Made by a program: the position numbers and the translations under genes. A stretch of DNA of 38,287 nt, from IMG/VR virus record IMGVR_UViG_3300036817_000312, positions 1-38,287 of that record; one strand, written 5' to 3'. Below are positions 3,239-32,967 of the stretch, in pieces (position 1 is the first letter of the stretch; each line of letters opens with the position of its first letter). Below the pieces are notes generated by a model that saw nothing but the letters and a program-made list of their open reading frames with translations, made no database searches and was not told the origin of the DNA. Origin of the DNA: a virus.

Positions 3239-3286
3239 GGCGCTCAAAGTAGCGCGAGAGGCTACCCTTTGCCAAGCGGCGAATTA

Positions 3287-3315
3287 GTGGACACCGGTTC
3301 CTGGACAGTGTCCAC
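3287..3315. promoter_or_regulatory. 8-bp inverted repeat at array edge
   Basis: GTGGACAC (3287-3294) and GTGTCCAC (3308-3315) form a perfect inverted repeat with a 13-nt loop, ending 6 nt before the first array repeat. If the array is read on the minus strand, as tas is, the hairpin would end the array transcript. If it is read on the plus strand, the hairpin lies in the leader. No T-tract supports a classical terminator. Confidence 0.45.
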
Positions 3316-3321
3316 CAATTG

Positions 3322-3881
3322 TGGCTCGCTCTCTAAATATGGTTGACTCTTGCCTATTGGCTCGCTCACAACTTCTTGGGTTACTCACGGTTTCTGACTC
3401 GCTCACTTGGTGTGGGGGGTTACTCTTCGAGGGTGGCTCGCTCTTCCAATTTGGGTTACTCGTTCAAGCTGGCTCGCTCCTGGCTCCGTGGGTGATTCTT
3501 AGTTGATGGCTCGCTCCATCTTCATGGGTTTCTCGCTTACCTGGGCTCGCTCTTCTGTCATGGTGGCTGCTCCCTATTAATGGCTCCGCTCGCGATACAT
3601 GGTTGACTCCTTTTTGATGGCTCGCTCCTTTCTCGCGGTTGATTCCCGATGCGTGGCTCGCTCCTTTTATTTGGTTGACTCTCTTTTGCTGGCTCGCTCG
3701 CGGTGGGTGGTTGACTCTCTTCAGTGGGCTCGCTCAGTTTACCTTGGTTGACTCCAAGTATTTGGCTCGCTCCTCTCGCATGGTTAACTTCGAGGGTCGT
3801 GGCTCGCTCGCGTCACATGGGTGGACTCCAACATAATTGGCTCGCTCCTAATCGATGGTTGACTCTTGTCTGTTGGCTCAC
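3322..3881. repeat. TIGR-like array: alternating 10-nt repeats with mostly 8-9-nt spacers
   Basis: Plus-strand TGGCTCGCTC-type repeats start at 3322, 3358, 3395, 3434, 3470, 3507, 3543, 3581, 3618, 3654, 3690, 3726, 3763, 3800 and 3838, with a degenerate end at 3874. They alternate with TGGTTGACTC-type repeats at 3340, 3377, 3416, 3452, 3489, 3525, 3561, 3600, 3636, 3672, 3708, 3745, 3781, 3818 and 3856. Thirty intervening spacers, mostly 8 and sometimes 9 nt (one 11), are all different, for example TCTAAATA, GCGATACA, CTAATCGA. The unit is 36-38 bp with two repeats and two spacers, the published layout of tandem interspaced guide RNA (TIGR) arrays and unlike CRISPR. No frame stays open across it. 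It abuts the tas-like gene, whose TGA lies in the last repeat. The transcribed strand is not determined. Confidence 0.85.
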
Positions 3882-4675
3882 GAGTCTTGCGGCCCAATAA
3901 TGCCGTCATGGCCCAGGACCGTTTCTACATAGGGTCCGCGTACATCTAAACCCTGGGCCGAGCGGCCCTTCTGCCAGTAGTGCACCAGGAAGATTTTTAC
4001 CGCCCGCCGTTTCGCTCTGGCATGCAAATGGGCATCACTTAACTTGCCTTCCAGTAACCGTTTCTTGGTGGCGTTATCGGTCTTAAATTTCTTGTTGGCC
4101 AGTTCGCGCTTAGCCTGCTCTACGTACAAGCCGTTCTCGTTCCGGCTTACCTCGTCAGCCTTGAATTGGGCATACAGCTTGCCATAGGTGGCACCTTCTT
4201 TGCCGCTGACCTTGACGAATGATTCGCCGACTTTCCAACAGAGAACCTTTAGCCGGGAATTATAGGGAAGCTTTTCCCCCTTGGTCTTACGATCAAAGCC
4301 CGGAGCCAGCCCGGCAAATTTCCATACCGCTGAAGGGCTAACCGCTTTAACTGGATCGATATGCGCAGCGAGCCCAGCAGCCAGAATCGGCCCGATCCCG
4401 ATCTGGTCATAAGCCCATTTTGCTTCCGCCGGACTACGCTTGCTTGCGACCCACTGTTTGAGCTTCGCGGCGATAACGCGCTCCCCCAGCAGGAGCCACT
4501 TACTAAACCATTCGGTCAGCTCACGCGGCGATTCGGTGCGCTCCTTGTTGGCGTGCATGATGCGTAGCTCTTGCGCGTCGTAATAGAGTTCCACCGCATC
4601 AGCGACATCGGCGGTTTCAAGCTCGTAAGCTTTGATGATTTTATCAATCAACTCGTTCCGGGTTTCGCTTATCAT
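3878..4675 (-). CDS. Tas-like protein: Nop/IS110-C-like RNA-guided protein, no nuclease
   Basis: This is a 265-aa protein starting at ATG 4675. Residues 1-90 are helical. A helix-hairpin-helix-like QIGIGPILAAGLAAHID (about 91-107) and WKFAGLAP (118-125) match the C-terminal Transposase_20 core of IS110 transposases. SRLKVLCWKVGESFVKVSG (140-158) and SDAHLHARAKRRAVKIFLVHYW (213-234) complete a fold related to the Nop domain of box C/D snoRNP proteins. The RuvC-like DEDD domain of IS110 is absent, and no HNH or RuvC was seen. TIGR-Tas systems pair such Nop proteins with dual-spacer arrays, and the array here begins at this gene's stop codon. The best reading is a nuclease-less Tas (TasA-like). 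An isolated IS110-like remnant is less likely given the array. Upstream lies the dyad element shared with other early genes. Confidence 0.8.
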   Translation of the reverse strand: MISETRNELIDKIIKAYELETADVADAVELYYDAQELRIMHANKERTESPRELTEWFSKWLLLGERVIAAKLKQWVASKRSPAEAKWAYDQIGIGPILAAGLAAHIDPVKAVSPSAVWKFAGLAPGFDRKTKGEKLPYNSRLKVLCWKVGESFVKVSGKEGATYGKLYAQFKADEVSRNENGLYVEQAKRELANKKFKTDNATKKRLLEGKLSDAHLHARAKRRAVKIFLVHYWQKGRSAQGLDVRGPYVETVLGHDGIIGPQDS

Positions 4676-4719: not shown

Positions 4720-5688
4720 TTACTCCGGCCCACAGGCTTCGCCACTGAACGCCCCAGCTGGCAATTGCCAGTCTTCGACAAAGATCGGGCCATCCCAGTT
4801 GGCATCCTTGGCCTCAGCTACCAGCTCGGCGTTAGCGGTCTGGATGTGAGGGATACCGCTGGCAGCCTTGTCCTCGACTGCGATCTTATTGCGATCGATC
4901 GTTTTACCGAACTGGCGCTCGAAGGCGGCGATGCGCTCGACTCGGTCTGGGAAGATGCGCTTAGCGCTGGCCCATTGGCCTGCGCCACCGAAGATGCACA
5001 AGGCACAGGAAAGCCTGCCCCAGCCCAAGCGGTAAGCTGGCGCTGGGTTAACCTTGAACGCTTTGATGATGTCCCAGACCTGGGCTTCAGTCCAGGCGTG
5101 CACCGGGCGCAAGTTGTCCACGGTGCGGCTCTGGGTCGAAAGCGATTTATTGGACTCGAAGCTCGCATACTTGGCGCGAGCCGTTGATTCCTGGGCGCGC
5201 TCGCCCGAGATGATCAGCGTGCGCTTGCCACTGAAGCGGGGCTGGTTCGCGACCAGTCGGCGCATCACATCGATCTTGAGCGAGCTTGAGCACCAGCGGG
5301 TCGAGAGATCGGCCCCAACTTGCGGGAACTGGAGCCGGGTATTCTTCGGGCCCTTGCCGCCAGCGGTTCTGGTGCCTTCAGGCGTCTCGAAGATCGTGCG
5401 CGCCGTGGGACTATCGTTACGCAACATCTCGCGCAAGAACCCGCCTTCACGCCAGCTGAAGTAAATCTTGACTCCGAACGCGTCCGCGAACTTCCGGCAG
5501 TAAGCTGGGGTCGACGGCCAGTCCATGAAGCCAGCGCCCTCTTCGCGGCCATCGACATCATGATGATGCAGCTCGATCTTACTCAACGGCACACCGGCCT
5601 GGAGCAGGGCCAGGAAACTGGCAATGGAATCTTTGCCACCAGAAAAAGCTAACAGGTAAAAATCGTAAGTAAGATCGATCGCTTGCAT
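4720..5688 (-). CDS. PAPS-reductase-like PP-loop ATP pyrophosphatase
   Basis: This is a 322-aa protein with the PP-loop FSGGKDS at residues 15-21, the ATP-pyrophosphatase signature of the PAPS reductase/DndC/MesJ superfamily. Supporting features are a His/Asp-rich HHHDVDGRE segment (about 41-49) and SGERAQES (about 180-187). A Cys-containing WGRLSCALC block (about 246-254) resembles the C-terminal cysteines of phage PAPS-reductase-like proteins. Such genes are frequent in phages, and their substrate is usually unknown; roles in sulfur metabolism or nucleic-acid modification have been proposed. The gene lies 45 nt upstream of tas on the same strand and carries the same promoter dyad, so the two are likely co-regulated. 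Confidence 0.8.
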   Translation of the reverse strand: MQAIDLTYDFYLLAFSGGKDSIASFLALLQAGVPLSKIELHHHDVDGREEGAGFMDWPSTPAYCRKFADAFGVKIYFSWREGGFLREMLRNDSPTARTIFETPEGTRTAGGKGPKNTRLQFPQVGADLSTRWCSSSLKIDVMRRLVANQPRFSGKRTLIISGERAQESTARAKYASFESNKSLSTQSRTVDNLRPVHAWTEAQVWDIIKAFKVNPAPAYRLGWGRLSCALCIFGGAGQWASAKRIFPDRVERIAAFERQFGKTIDRNKIAVEDKAASGIPHIQTANAELVAEAKDANWDGPIFVEDWQLPAGAFSGEACGPE

Positions 5689-7283: not shown

Positions 7284-7324
7284 CGCATTTAAGCCTCTCA
7301 CCGAGAGCCCTTTAAACGCATCGG

Positions 7325-7399
7325 ATGCGCAACGCTATTTTCGGCATAATGCCGATGCGCAACGCTAGGATCACGGCATAATGCCGATGCGCAACGCTT
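7325..7399. repeat. Three tandem ATGCGCAACGCT repeats with CGGCATAATGCCG dyads
   Basis: ATGCGCAACGCT(A/T) occurs at 7325, 7355 and 7387. The last two are preceded by the perfect dyad CGGCATAATGCCG (7342-7354, 7374-7386). The same composite occurs at 1906-1949, 12025-12037 and 21458-21501, always outside or at the very end of genes. It behaves like a REP/BIME-type or protein-binding repeat. Its function is unknown. Confidence 0.65.
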
Positions 7400-17945: not shown

Positions 17946-18246
17946 CCGGCTCGAGCGCGATGAGCAGAAGCAGTTTGCTAACTGGTGTCTTTTGAAGGGT
18001 TACCCGTTTAGTTGGCATGCAACTCATACCCGAAGTAAAGCGACTCCAGGCACGCCCGATTTCTGGGTTGGTGTCGCCGGAGTGGGGCTCTGGATCGAGT
18101 TCAAGCGCGATTGCGAAAGCAAGCTATCGGCTGCTCAGGAACAGTTCGGTCGCCAGCTCGAGGAGCAGGGGATGCGGCTCTACGTTGTTTACTCAGCCGC
18201 TGAGGCTATCGCTTTGGTGCAGTTTTTTCTGCTGCGGCTGCCTTGA
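17827..18246 (+). CDS. VRR-NUC domain nuclease
   Basis: This is a 139-aa protein from GTG 17827. Residues 43-116 show the VRR-NUC/PD-(D/E)xK order: ERDEQKQFANWC with a catalytic-type Glu, then ATPGTPDFWVG with GxPD, then LWIEFKRD with ExK, then SAAQEQFGRQLEEQGMRLYVV. These nucleases are frequent in phage replication/recombination modules and may process branched DNA. The first 40 residues overlap the previous gene by 119 nt in another frame. A downstream start near 17960 is possible but would trim the N-terminus. Confidence 0.8.
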   Translation: MAIRLKDYPHLLKLLQPADLREFGPGIQPSLDNHPQPKTDRLERDEQKQFANWCLLKGYPFSWHATHTRSKATPGTPDFWVGVAGVGLWIEFKRDCESKLSAAQEQFGRQLEEQGMRLYVVYSAAEAIALVQFFLLRLP

Positions 18247-18272
18247 AAAAGCATGCTTAAGCATGCTTTTAA
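18245..18272 (+). repeat. Double GCATGC palindrome
   Basis: GAAAAAGCATGC TTAA GCATGCTTTTAAG is a doubled version of the dyad at 9721 and 10128. It begins at the stop codon of the VRR-NUC gene and could fold as one long hairpin, so it may act as a terminator or operator here. Confidence 0.5.
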
Positions 18273-18472
18273 GAAGAACCGGCTCCCGCCGGGGAACCCT
18301 TACTGCAGGCTCAGTCGCCGCCGGGCTCGCTGCCCTCCCGGGCAGAAGACCCCAGAACCCCACTGTGAAAGCTACAGGAACGAAGAGTAGGGGTTCAAAA
18401 TTTGGTGTCAAGCCTAAAAGCGAGATTATCGACAAAAAGACGATTAAGAACAGAAGCAAGCAAAAGGAGATT

Positions 18473-18973
18473 ATGTCGAAGAAAAAGAATTACGGACAAC
18501 TATGGATTCCGACAGTACAGCAGGCCGTGGAAGATTCTTTCGAAGAAAAACCCGCTGGCATGCCCTCGCTATCGGTCATTAAAGCTGAGGTGGCAAAGCT
18601 TGGTTTACTGGATAGTGACGCCGAGTACATCTATCACGCCTGGATGGCTAACGGGTTCAAGAACGCGCGAGGCCATAAGATTATCAGCTGGCATTCAGCC
18701 ATCCGCACTTGGGCCATCAACCGATTCTTCCCCAGCCAGAAAGAAGCATTGCGCGCAGCAACCCGGCCCAAGCCGCCGGAACCGCCCAGCTGGGTGCCCC
18801 CGACCAAAGAAGCTTTCCTGGCCTATTGCCAGGAAAAAAAGATGACCGGCTCCTATGGCCTGCGCCTGTACCGGTTCTTGGTGGCACGCAACTGGAAGTA
18901 CTTCGGGGTGCCGGTCACCAGCGACGAGCAATGGAAAGCGATCTGTCACACCCATGAGTTTAATGACCGATGA
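18473..18973 (+). CDS. Replication-initiator-like protein with duplicated module
   Basis: ATG 18473 has an AGGAG 5 nt upstream, so it is preferred to the long composite frame opening at 18017. The 166-aa product contains two similar helical modules. One is AEYIYHAWMANGFKNARGHKIISWHSAIRTWAINRF (residues about 50-86), the other FLAYCQEKKMTGSYGLRLYRFLVARNWKYFGVPVTSDEQWKAICHT (about 117-161). This Y..w.a.gW......i..W..a.rtW pattern is typical of phage replication proteins of the DnaT/gpO type, but the assignment is tentative. Confidence 0.6.
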   Translation: MSKKKNYGQLWIPTVQQAVEDSFEEKPAGMPSLSVIKAEVAKLGLLDSDAEYIYHAWMANGFKNARGHKIISWHSAIRTWAINRFFPSQKEALRAATRPKPPEPPSWVPPTKEAFLAYCQEKKMTGSYGLRLYRFLVARNWKYFGVPVTSDEQWKAICHTHEFNDR

Positions 18974-19293
18974 AAGCAGCTTACCTTTGCCGCAACCTGA
19001 AGCTCTCGATCGAGCGCCTGGATGAAACCTCCCAGATCCGTTTGTGTTTAAGAAACGATGTCAGTCTAGAGGAGGTCGATCTATGTTACGACGTAGGAGA
19101 GGGCACACTCGATCGGCGCTATCACCTGCGCGAAGCGATGGTGATAGGGATGCGCCGGTTAGTGAGCCTAGCAGTCGATGCCGGGCTGATCTCGGATTAC
19201 CCTGGAGAGCACACGAGTTTGAAGTCTGGCAACGGCAAGATGGGAGCGCCCGACCCACTTATCATGTGCTCGATCGACGAGGACTACTTGTAG
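18970..19293 (+). CDS. Hypothetical protein
   Basis: This is a 107-aa protein, MKAAYLCRNLKLSIERLDETSQIRLCLRNDVSLEEVDLCYDV..., starting in an ATGA overlap with the replication gene. Helical (YHLREAMVIGMRRLVSLAVDAGLISDYPG). No family was recognised. About 50 nt separate it from the large terminase gene. Confidence 0.6.
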   Translation: MKAAYLCRNLKLSIERLDETSQIRLCLRNDVSLEEVDLCYDVGEGTLDRRYHLREAMVIGMRRLVSLAVDAGLISDYPGEHTSLKSGNGKMGAPDPLIMCSIDEDYL

Positions 19294-19341
19294 CGATTTT
19301 TATGGATCTACAGATCGCTCGAGATGTGGCAACAATCATGA

Positions 19342-21153
19342 ATGGATCTAGCTAAATTCCGGCGCAGCTGCGGCGAGTGCTCTGATGAAGAACTAGTCAA
19401 AGCAGTCGCTGCGATCGACCCCAGTGTCGAGGTGCCTGATCAGGCCAAGACCTGGATCTGGGCCCTGGTTAAACGTCTCTTGGACACTGAGCGTTATGCG
19501 CTGGCCGGGATGGTGCTATGGGGCCCAGCGCTCTTTAACGCCGGGCCGAAGGCAGTCCAGCAGCTGCTCAAGTTCGTTCGCTCAACCCAGAACATGATCG
19601 TGCTGGGCGCAGCCGCTATGGGGAAGACCTACACGTTGATCTGTTACTGTCTCCTAGACTGGCTCCGGGATCCTGAATACACAGAGATTAAAATTATCAG
19701 TACGACCGGCGGCCACGCTAAGAGCCAATCCTTTTCTACGCTCCAGCGGCTGTATCAGGCGGCAATCATTCCGCTGCCGGGTTTAAGCATGGACGGTTTC
19801 GTTGGCCTGAACCCAAAGGATAGACACTCTGCGATCACACTAGTTGCCATTCCCCAAGGCGAGGACGGGCGAGGGGTCTTGCAAGGGTTTCACCCGGTCC
19901 CGCGCTCGCGACCTCATCCGATGTTCGGAGCGATGTCGCGGGTCCGGGCGCTCTTGGACGAGGCCGAAGAAATCCCGGTCGGGGTTTGGGAAGGCGTTTC
20001 CAACTTGCTCGCGAGCGCCTGGGGCGCAGAAGCAGTCAAGGTGGCCTGTGCTACTAACCCGCGTGATGTGACCTCGAAACTGGCCCAGCTGGCTGAACCG
20101 ACCAATGGCTGGACTACGCTCAACATGGACACTGACAAGGAGTGGGTTAGTGCTGAGCGCTGGAACGTGTTGCGCCTGGATGGGATCGAGTGTGAGAACG
20201 TGGCCCAGCGGGAGTTAATTTTTCCCGGTTTCTTGACATGGGACGGCTATCAGAAGTTCGCGTTGGAGCTGGGCGGCCAAAGCCCGAAGTACCTGACCTT
20301 TGGCCGCGCCATGTACCCACTTAGCGCGCTGCAGAATACGCTGATTCCCTACAGCCTGCTAGAGGCCGTGATCGGCCAGTTCATTTTTGATCAACGCACA
20401 GTCGGCTGTAGCGGGATCGATCTAGCCTTCGAGGGCGGAGATCGGATCATCGTATTCGTCGGCAAGTACGGGCGCGCGATCGGGTTTCAGCCCCTGAAAG
20501 GCCAGCCGGTCTTGTGGAAAAAGCCACGGTACTGTGTCCAGGCCGATCAGTACTATGAGATGCCCAAAGAGCGAACGATCGCGCTGGCTAGTTCAATCGA
20601 GATCCGGCTCAAGGGGCTCCAGATCCATCCTGATTGGACTACTTGCGACCGTACCGGGGTGGGCACCGGCGCGCATGACGCATTGTGCGAACAGTGGAGC
20701 CCGATGGTGCGCGGAGTTATGTGGGGCGCAGAGGCGGGTGCGTACAAGATCCTGGCTGATGATCACGATTACTCAGTCGAAATCTATGATGGGATTACCA
20801 CTGAGATGTACGCTCGGGTGCGGAAATTCTTGGAGTTCGGTTTTTTGGCTTTTCATCCGCAGATATTGACCGCGCAGCTCTTTAAAGAGCTTTCTGGCCG
20901 CCGGTATCAGCCTGCGCCTAAAGGACCCTCAGGCAAGCCCAGGATACGGCTCGAGCCAAAGAAGGAGTTTAAGAGACGCTTGGGCTGGTCGCCTGACATC
21001 GCCGATGCGCTTGTGATGCTGGTGCACGGCGCTGCTATCAACGGGCCGGAAAAAGCGACGATGCTGGGTAGTAACCGGCAAGCACCCAGGCCCGATTCCA
21101 ATATCGGTATTCGTGAGAAATGGGCTACGATCGACTTCAGCAGCGAAATCTAA
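19342..21153 (+). CDS. terL: Terminase large subunit
   Basis: This is a 603-aa protein. Walker A-like LGAAAMGKTYT is at about residues 88-98, and Walker B-like RVRALLDEAEEIP follows at about 200-212, for the packaging ATPase. The C-terminal half carries an RNase H-like nuclease: GIDLAFEGGDR (motif with a catalytic-type Asp), DRTGVGTGAHDALCEQW, and SPDIADALVMLVHG near the end. The order ATPase-nuclease and the length match phage TerL. The start ATG 19342 gives MDLAKFRRSC; no good Shine-Dalgarno is visible. Confidence 0.85.
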   Translation: MDLAKFRRSCGECSDEELVKAVAAIDPSVEVPDQAKTWIWALVKRLLDTERYALAGMVLWGPALFNAGPKAVQQLLKFVRSTQNMIVLGAAAMGKTYTLICYCLLDWLRDPEYTEIKIISTTGGHAKSQSFSTLQRLYQAAIIPLPGLSMDGFVGLNPKDRHSAITLVAIPQGEDGRGVLQGFHPVPRSRPHPMFGAMSRVRALLDEAEEIPVGVWEGVSNLLASAWGAEAVKVACATNPRDVTSKLAQLAEPTNGWTTLNMDTDKEWVSAERWNVLRLDGIECENVAQRELIFPGFLTWDGYQKFALELGGQSPKYLTFGRAMYPLSALQNTLIPYSLLEAVIGQFIFDQRTVGCSGIDLAFEGGDRIIVFVGKYGRAIGFQPLKGQPVLWKKPRYCVQADQYYEMPKERTIALASSIEIRLKGLQIHPDWTTCDRTGVGTGAHDALCEQWSPMVRGVMWGAEAGAYKILADDHDYSVEIYDGITTEMYARVRKFLEFGFLAFHPQILTAQLFKELSGRRYQPAPKGPSGKPRIRLEPKKEFKRRLGWSPDIADALVMLVHGAAINGPEKATMLGSNRQAPRPDSNIGIREKWATIDFSSEI

Positions 21154-22191: not shown

Positions 22192-22368
22192 ATATTTAAT
22201 CTTCTGTGTGGATTGTTAACTAACTTTGGTTTGTTAGTTTCGTTAGTTTTGTTAACTAGCTTTGCTTTGTTAACTGGTCGGCGTTGTTTAGGTTTACGGA
22301 GCGAGAGAGACAGGCTATAAGAGCCAGTTGGAAAGCGTTCCCTGTTCTCTCCTGTTTAAAAGCCATTC
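22192..22368. promoter_or_regulatory. Divergent AT-rich regulatory region
   Basis: The region holds several TTGTTAACT/TTAGTTTTGTTAACT words (22210-22280), an obvious direct-repeat cluster between the divergent genes at 22191 (minus) and 22369 (plus). It contrasts with the GC-rich coding sequence and probably carries the promoters for both. I could not assign individual boxes. Confidence 0.4.
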
Positions 22369-31701: not shown

Positions 31702-32967
31702 ATGAATCCTTCCAAGTTTCCGAAAAATAAAACCGCACCTTGGCGCGTCATGGTTCCTCAGCGCTGGAGTCCCACTGGCAAGCGCTGGCCCCATTATTTC
31801 AAGACCGAAAAGTTGGCCGCTGAATTTTGCGCGAAGGTCAAACGGTTTGGCGTCAGCGCCTTTAATGACACCGAACGAGCCAAAGGCACAGCGCCGGTCT
31901 TAAGCGAGCAGGAAGAGGACCAGTTCCTCGCAGCCGCACGCTACGGCGCTCAAAAGCTGGGTGAAGTCAGCGCCCTTTACCGAGCTATCGACCACTGGTT
32001 CGCAACCCGGCTCAAGGTTACCCAGGGCACCATCGAAGAGGTCGTCAGCGCCTTCCACGAATCGCGCAAGCGTAACCCCAAGATCAAATGCAAAAGAGTT
32101 CTCAAAAACGACCATTCCAGACTCAAGAGCTTGACCAATTTTTTTGCCGGTAGGCAGTTGACCGACATTACCGAGTCGATGCTGCTGGAATATTTCGACG
32201 CTCTGACCGGTCATCACCGTTCGATTTATTCGACCGTTAACCTGTTCTTTGGCTGGGCCCGGAAGCGCAACTATCTAGTCGAAAATCCAATGAAGGATAT
32301 CGAGCCGGTCGGCGAGTGGGGCGTCAACAACGAGTATTATCTGATCGAAGATTTCCGGCGGATGTTGCAGATCGCTGCGGGCTTGCCCGACCCTAAAGGC
32401 GAGGTCGAAATCACTAGAAAATACGAAGACCTGTTGCCCTGGCTGGTTCTATCCGGTTTCGGTGGTTTCCGTTCCTGTGAAGTCTCCCGGGTCAAGGACC
32501 GCGATGCCCTGCGCTGGACCGACTTATGCTTTAATGCAAACCCACCGGGAATCAATGTCCGTAAAGAGGTGGGTAAAGGCTGGCGCTCTCGTCCATTCGA
32601 TAAGCCTTATGCGATCGAGGCAATCAGAGAATGGCTACCGCTGTTGCCTGCCAGAACCAACGAGTGGATCTGCTCATTGGGCAATCACAGCTTGGATGAT
32701 TTGAAAAAGCAATTCACCGAAGCCACCGGGATCAAATTCATCGAGAATGGGTTGAGGAATTCATGGGCTACCTACGCCCTGTCCTATGATACGCGCGAAG
32801 GCGCTGGCGCAATCGCCAAACAGATGGGCAATTCCGAGAAAGTGCTCTTGAGCAATTACGCGCAACTCCTGCCCACCGGCAGCGGTCTGGCATGGTTCAA
32901 CCTGCGGCCACAGTCACAAACGACGTTCACCGTAGTGGCAGCTGCCGCCGAAGAGAAAGCCGCCTGA
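31702..32967 (+). CDS. int: Tyrosine integrase/recombinase
   Basis: This is a 421-aa protein. The N-terminal 200 residues hold a core-binding SAM-like domain (HWFATRLKVTQGTIEEVVSAFH, and later HSRLKSLTNFFAGRQLTDITE). The catalytic part shows GGFRSCEVSR (first Arg of the RHRY set), NGLRNSWATYAL (HxLR-type motif with Asn where His is usual) and MGNSEKVLLSNYAQL (H/N plus nucleophilic Tyr). The substitutions at the His positions resemble Verrucomicrobiota/Planctomycetota-type phage integrases. Family membership is strong. Host inference is weak. Confidence 0.8.
   Translation: MNPSKFPKNKTAPWRVMVPQRWSPTGKRWPHYFKTEKLAAEFCAKVKRFGVSAFNDTERAKGTAPVLSEQEEDQFLAAARYGAQKLGEVSALYRAIDHWFATRLKVTQGTIEEVVSAFHESRKRNPKIKCKRVLKNDHSRLKSLTNFFAGRQLTDITESMLLEYFDALTGHHRSIYSTVNLFFGWARKRNYLVENPMKDIEPVGEWGVNNEYYLIEDFRRMLQIAAGLPDPKGEVEITRKYEDLLPWLVLSGFGGFRSCEVSRVKDRDALRWTDLCFNANPPGINVRKEVGKGWRSRPFDKPYAIEAIREWLPLLPARTNEWICSLGNHSLDDLKKQFTEATGIKFIENGLRNSWATYALSYDTREGAGAIAKQMGNSEKVLLSNYAQLLPTGSGLAWFNLRPQSQTTFTVVAAAAEEKAA

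What the first reader, a model, noticed from the sequence alone, without database searches (positions are those of the whole stretch)
3322..4675. TIGR-Tas-like locus in a phage: dual-spacer array adjoining a Nop/IS110-C protein
Seen in the sequence: 31 short repeats of two alternating types (TGGCTCGCTC, TGGTTGACTC) separated by 30 unique spacers of mostly 8-9 nt, in 36-38 bp units, ending in the stop codon of a 265-aa protein with IS110-C/Nop-like motifs and no nuclease. From established knowledge: TIGR-Tas systems have short tandem repeats with paired spacers and a Nop-containing Tas protein, sometimes without a nuclease. Inference: this is a phage-borne, nuclease-less TIGR-Tas locus, possibly used for target binding or regulation.
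Basis: partly seen in the sequence, partly recalled or inferred. Interest (0 to 1): 0.95.

Follow-up and report, generated by a model that had tools for sequence, protein, structure and literature searches.

The report
Phage TIGR-TasA guide-RNA locus
This phage carries a small RNA-binding protein (TasA) next to a row of 15 paired guide sequences, a clear but ordinary new member of the recently described TIGR-Tas family of RNA-guided DNA-binding systems, whose natural targets are still unknown.

Summary
On the minus strand, 3322-3883 holds 31 alternating short repeats (16 edge GAGCGAGCCA, 15 loop GAGTCAACCA) and 30 spacers, mostly 8 nt (9 by the paper's convention), in 36-38 nt units. It scores 514, against at most 121 in shuffles. 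The array starts inside the stop codon of the 265-aa gene (3878-4675, same strand). That protein matches NCBIfam TIGR_Tas_endo over its curated cut-off (147.5 vs 100 bits) and PDB TasH and TasR. Its AlphaFold model matches only Tas structures in the PDB. It has no HNH or RuvC domain, so it is TasA, not an IS110 transposase. At least 259 viral loci encode relatives, and nearly all of the 80 kept carry such an array. In this phage group tasA is accessory: three records have it, four 74-78 kb relatives lack it. Searches for natural targets in the phage itself, in related phages and across 98 contigs gave nothing above control geometries. Verdict: a new member of a known kind. Its role remains open, as in the founding paper (PMC12045711). 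I favour guided, non-cleaving binding to rival mobile DNA, at moderate confidence.

The parts
3878..4675 (-). tasA: 265-aa solo Nop-domain Tas protein without a nuclease domain
   Evidence: NF052498 TIGR_Tas_endo 147.5 bits vs cut-off 100; PDB TasH E=3e-22, query residues 44-264 on TasH 96-304, and TasR 9mty E=1e-15; AlphaFold model matches only TasH/TasR structures, best E=3.9e-7
3322..3883 (-). TIGR array: 15 units of edge repeat GAGCGAGCCA - spacer A - loop repeat GAGTCAACCA - spacer B, closed by a 16th edge repeat; first edge repeat truncated and overlapping the tasA stop codon
   Evidence: score 514 vs shuffles at most 121; repeat conservation profile
3282..3320 (-). 15-bp hairpin directly after the last edge repeat (AAUUGGUGGACACUG / CGGUGUCCACUAAUU); candidate transcript end, but without a U-run
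   Evidence: -29.9 kcal/mol, z -3.47; the 8-bp inverted repeat occurs once in the window and not in the 19 other contigs tested
4720..5688 (-). PAPS-reductase-like gene 44 bp upstream of tasA on the same strand; possible co-transcription, not a conserved partner
   Evidence: PF01507 E=5e-9, phrog_424; not adjacent to tasA in relatives
19342..21153 (+). terminase large subunit (shows that the window is phage)
   Evidence: phrog_2; 75-87% identical relatives in 17 viral contigs
31702..32967 (+). integrase (suggests a temperate phage)
   Evidence: phrog_1 E=7.5e-14

Best explanation
A phage-borne TIGR-TasA locus. Inferred mechanism: tasA and the array are transcribed together on the minus strand, and the pre-tigRNA is trimmed at the edge repeats into about 15 RNAs of about 36 nt (edge half, spacer A, loop, spacer B, edge half). 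A TasA dimer holds each RNA by its box-C-like CCA and box-D-like AG motifs. The two spacers pair with opposite strands of a DNA site that reads 5'-B-(0-2 nt)-revcomp(A)-3'. With no nuclease, the complex bends and occupies the site and so blocks transcription or replication there. The most likely use is against rival mobile elements in the same host (about 45%); regulation of phage or host genes is about 20-25%, help to integration or partitioning about 5-10%, and the rest unknown. Shown here: family membership, array anatomy, absence of a nuclease domain, accessory distribution. Inferred: transcription, processing, DNA binding, biological purpose. The confidence given is for membership and for guided DNA binding without cutting, not for the purpose.
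For: Array anatomy. The Tas family model passes its cut-off. Sequence and fold match TasH and TasR, and nothing else convincingly in the PDB. Eleven relatives at 59-72% identity, and nearly all of the 80 loci kept, have such an array near the gene, most often with the same edge core AGCGAGCC. In the published work FpTasA with its array gave 36-nt RNAs, and TasR and TasH bind both target strands (PMC12045711). tasA is present in three and absent from four relatives on 74-78 kb contigs, as expected for cargo rather than a core function.
Against: No spacer pair has a convincing target in this phage, in 19 other phage contigs, or among 497 guides against 98 contigs, so the 'rival element' step has no direct support. 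No small-RNA data exist, and RNA processing and DNA binding cannot be tested here. Some loop repeats and a few units are irregular (for example near 3563-3601), so part of the array may be worn.
Confidence: 0.9

Rival explanations
1. Self or host gene regulation: TasA-tigRNA complexes bind sites in the phage's own genome or the host's to switch genes, for example between lysogeny and lysis.
For: No nuclease, so self-binding would not be lethal; the phage has an integrase.
Against: No own-genome site matches any of the 15 window guides in the published geometry with 2 or fewer mismatches. Related phages without tasA keep the rest of the genome. The host is unknown and was not searched.
Confidence: 0.2
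2. Help to phage DNA transactions: guided bending of DNA assists the integrase or partitioning, as the founding paper suggested for TasA.
For: TasR bends target DNA by nearly 180 degrees (PMC12045711); an integrase is in the window.
Against: About 10 to 61 different guides per array are far more than one attachment site needs. The integrase is not near tasA and was not found in the tasA-bearing relatives. No ParB-like gene was recognised next to tasA.
Confidence: 0.07
3. An IS110-family transposase remnant with unrelated tandem repeats.
For: The C-terminal region of IS110 transposases shares the Nop-like fold (PMC12045711); PHROG 4285 is labelled 'transposase'.
Against: IS110 model 12.7 bits vs cut-off 140, Tas model 147.5 vs 100. 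No DEDD domain. Arrays co-occur with the gene in nearly all relatives.
Confidence: 0.01
4. A low-complexity or protein-coding tandem repeat, or a CRISPR array.
For: Period near 36 bp.
Against: Stops in all six frames and frame-breaking unit lengths. Two alternating repeats of 9-10 nt with spacers of 8-9 nt are outside CRISPR dimensions. No Rfam family matched, and the adjoining protein matched no PADLOC defence model.
Confidence: 0.01

Closest known systems
TIGR-TasA of Flavonifractor plautii and other solo-Nop Tas loci (Faure et al. 2025, PMC12045711)
   Same: Solo Nop protein, dual-repeat array with edge and loop repeats, 36-nt unit, truncated first edge repeat, array adjoining the gene, mobile-element setting.
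   Different: Repeats AGCGAGCCA and AGTCAACCA, with box D 'AG' instead of the 'UG' of TasR arrays. FpTasA itself was not compared here by sequence. Targets unknown for both.
TIGR-TasH of Salicola phage CGphi29 (PDB 21kl, 9w04 and others)
   Same: About 33% identity over the Nop part; phage-borne; the CGphi29 region yields guides under the same edge pattern AGCGAGCC.
   Different: CGphi29 TasH has an N-terminal extension of about 90 residues (the published HNH nuclease), which the window protein lacks.
TasA loci L002/G001, L004, L044/G008 and L078-L086 from IMG/VR
   Same: 59-72% identical TasA, same edge repeat, same-strand arrays. G001 and G008 also share the phage backbone.
   Different: Array sizes of about 10 to 61 units; array upstream of tasA in G008, downstream in the window; different spacers and different loop repeats.
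IS110 RNA-guided transposases and box C/D snoRNP Nop56/58
   Same: Nop-type RNA-binding fold and dual-guide RNA with box C/D-like motifs (PMC12045711).
   Different: No DEDD part or fibrillarin link; IS110 model far below cut-off.

Membership tests
TIGR-Tas (Faure et al. 2025) | Nop-domain Tas protein of this family | tested here: met
   NF052498 147.5 bits vs cut-off 100; TasH/TasR in PDB by sequence and by fold
TIGR-Tas (Faure et al. 2025) | Array of two alternating 8-12-nt repeats with about 9-nt spacers, unit near 36 nt | tested here: met
   conservation per position
TIGR-Tas (Faure et al. [quoted passage not shown]
   TCGTGAGCCA at 3874-3883 overlapping the tasA stop
TIGR-Tas (Faure et al. 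2025) | Array followed by a rho-independent terminator | tested here: inconclusive
   Strong hairpin at 3282-3320 but no U-run; the terminator scan did not list it
TIGR-Tas (Faure et al. [quoted passage not shown]
   Both repeats read AG-NNNN-CCA; in several relatives the last base (CCA or CCG) differs in both repeats together
TIGR-Tas (Faure et al. 2025) | Array processed into 36-nt tigRNAs bound by Tas | not testable with these tools
   needs small-RNA sequencing
TIGR-Tas (Faure et al. 2025) | Tandem-spacer targeting of both DNA strands | tested here: inconclusive
   No natural target found above control geometries; absence from a small target set does not refute it
TasA subtype | No HNH or RuvC nuclease domain | tested here: met
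   265 aa; open frame at most 271 aa; alignment to TasH starts after its N-terminal extension; no Pfam match
IS110 transposase | DEDD domain and IS110 model above cut-off | tested here: not met
   12.7 bits vs cut-off 140
CRISPR-Cas | 25-36-nt repeats with similar-sized spacers and cas genes | tested here: not met
   9-10-nt repeats; no defence model for the adjoining protein

The most novel reading that the evidence does not exclude
The array is an evolving library of guides aimed at competing phages. It grows by copying single spacers into the same slot of nearby units (A to A, B to B) while the partner spacer changes, so each duplication makes a new pair. This would be a TIGR-specific way of diversifying guides without adaptation genes. 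The signal is seen in relatives, not in the window's own array, and a looser parser gave a noisier picture.
Probability: 0.12. Interest if true: 0.7.

Novelty: new member of a known kind. Interest (0 to 1): 0.35.

Why it matters
TIGR-Tas systems were described only in 2025, and both the role of nuclease-less TasA and the natural targets are open. This locus belongs to a set of related phages, some with and some without tasA, which gives a natural comparison. The negative target searches narrow where the targets can be: not in this phage's known sequence and not commonly in the close relatives sampled. As a single locus it adds one more member to a family with hundreds.

Tried and rejected
Target search: guides of four arrays against 20 contigs gave two apparent 17/18 matches at gap 0. 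One (G008 unit 11 in G019) was a parsing error that used repeat bases as spacer. The other (G001 guide TCATACATG/AGCCGGAGG; site AGCCGGAGGCATGTATGG in the locally identical contigs G010, G011, G013 and G016) has an expected count near 0.1 by my estimate and is not significant. With 497 guides on 2.04 Mb, the numbers of guides with a match of 1 or fewer mismatches were 5 in the published geometry and 4, 6 and 4 in three control geometries. Exact scans of three window guides in IMG/VR gave 44, 6 and 78 scattered hits, none in this phage group. The host was not identified: terminase and TasA scans of bacterial genomes found no relative. No tRNA gene and no Rfam match. A generic array parser over 47 loci produced overlapping units in some arrays (for example L147), so its duplication counts were not relied on. 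Rejected: IS110, CRISPR and coding repeat (see rivals).

Full report
Observation. On the minus strand, from 3883 down to 3322, the window holds 16 edge repeats (GAGCGAGCCA) and 15 loop repeats (GAGTCAACCA) in strict alternation, separated by 30 spacers: 24 of 8 nt, 4 of 9, one of 11 and one of 12 (most become 9 nt if the first G of each repeat is counted as spacer, as the paper's convention implies). A dynamic-programming parser scored the region 514.5, and the best of 30 shuffles scored 121. The array lies directly downstream of, and on the same strand as, the 265-aa gene at 3878-4675. Its first, truncated edge repeat contains the gene's TGA stop. It ends in a full edge repeat followed by a 15-bp hairpin at 3282-3320 (z = -3.47). 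That hairpin lacks a U-run, so it is only a candidate terminator. Stops in all six frames and unit lengths of 36-38 nt exclude a coding repeat.

The protein. Pfam has no match. NCBIfam's TIGR_Tas_endo model matches at 147.5 bits against a cut-off of 100, while the IS110 model reaches 12.7 against 140. Among PDB sequences, TasH matches at 3e-22 from query residue 44 (TasH residue 96 on), and TasR 9mty at 1e-15. An AlphaFold model built from four phage TasA sequences (mean pLDDT 71.5, pTM 0.73) matches 11 TasH or TasR chains in the PDB with Foldseek probability 1.00; the next match has probability 0.15. The open frame cannot be longer than 271 aa, so there is no room for a nuclease domain. This is TasA in the nomenclature of Faure et al. 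(PMC12045711).

Context. The window is a virus record from IMG/VR, with a terminase, RecT-like protein, integrase and helicase. Terminase relatives at 75-87% identity sit on 17 viral contigs, several of 68-78 kb, so the 38-kb window is probably part of a larger genome near 75 kb (inference). Three phages of this group carry tasA (window, G001, G008), and four contigs of 74-78 kb do not (G007, G013, G015, G019). In G001 and G008 tasA lies next to the conserved early genes that end at p11130 or p10717. In the window it lies about 6 kb away on the opposite strand from those genes. It therefore behaves as movable cargo. The gene upstream, a PAPS-reductase-like protein, is not a conserved neighbour.

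Relatives. A profile scan of IMG/VR found 259 loci encoding relatives. Of these 80 were kept, and nearly all have an array with 33-42 nt spacing near the gene. AGCGAGCC is the commonest edge core. Array size varies: about 10 units in L004, 15 in the window, about 35 in G001 and about 61 in G008, where the array lies upstream of tasA. The paper gives 5-15 as most frequent. A distant relative, L005, has a 281-aa TasA with an inserted Cys-rich segment and arrays on both sides with repeats TGCAAGCCA and TGAAACCCA.

Targets. From the published cut positions and 8-nt 3' overhangs I derived that a target reads 5'-B-(0-2)-revcomp(A)-3' (inference). Window guides have no match with 2 or fewer mismatches in their own contig. 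Guides of four arrays against 20 contigs, and 497 guides against 98 contigs, show no excess over three control geometries: 5 guides with matches of at most one mismatch, against 4, 6 and 4. Scans for three guides across IMG/VR returned scattered hits, none in this phage group. So the natural targets remain unknown, and frequent targeting of self or of the sampled close relatives is not supported.

Mechanism. By analogy with the solved TasR and TasH complexes and with FpTasA, a TasA dimer should carry single 36-nt tigRNAs and bind double-stranded DNA through two spacers on opposite strands, without cutting. Blocking transcription or replication of rival elements is the reading I favour. It rests on the accessory, variable nature of the locus and on the paper's argument, not on identified targets. 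Regulation of phage or host genes and help to DNA transactions remain possible.

Verdict. It is a new member of a known kind, one of hundreds, in a family whose biology is still open.

Noticed in passing
47 arrays in relatives, for example L002/G001, L140, L147: Within an array, identical or one-mismatch spacers recur in the same slot (A-A 19, B-B 13 pairs) far more than across slots (A-B 2, B-A 4; 3766 pairs each), mostly 1-5 units apart and usually with a different partner spacer. A looser parser gave a weaker, noisier signal.
   Followed up: partly
G008 (contig of L030/L085), about 17960-20700, minus strand: A TIGR array of about 61 units upstream of tasA, much longer than the 5-15 the founding paper calls most frequent.
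   Followed up: partly
L005 9500-11180: Distant TasA of 281 aa with a Cys-rich (CxxC...CxxC) insertion, flanked on both sides by arrays with TGCAAGCCA and TGAAACCCA repeats.
   Followed up: no
phrog_4285 (matched by window 3878-4675): The PHROG family labelled 'transposase' matches this TasA over nearly its whole length (E=1e-34) and probably consists of Tas proteins.
   Followed up: no
window 3287-3315: Inverted repeat GTGGACAC...GTGTCCAC right after the array, found once in the window and in none of the 19 other phage contigs tested.
   Followed up: partly
window 7324-7398 and 22209-22275: Two further short tandem repeats (periods 32 and 18 bp), not TIGR-like.
   Followed up: no
window 4720-5688: PAPS-reductase-like gene with partial similarity to DndC, SspD and BrxP models; its role next to tasA is unknown.
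   Followed up: no
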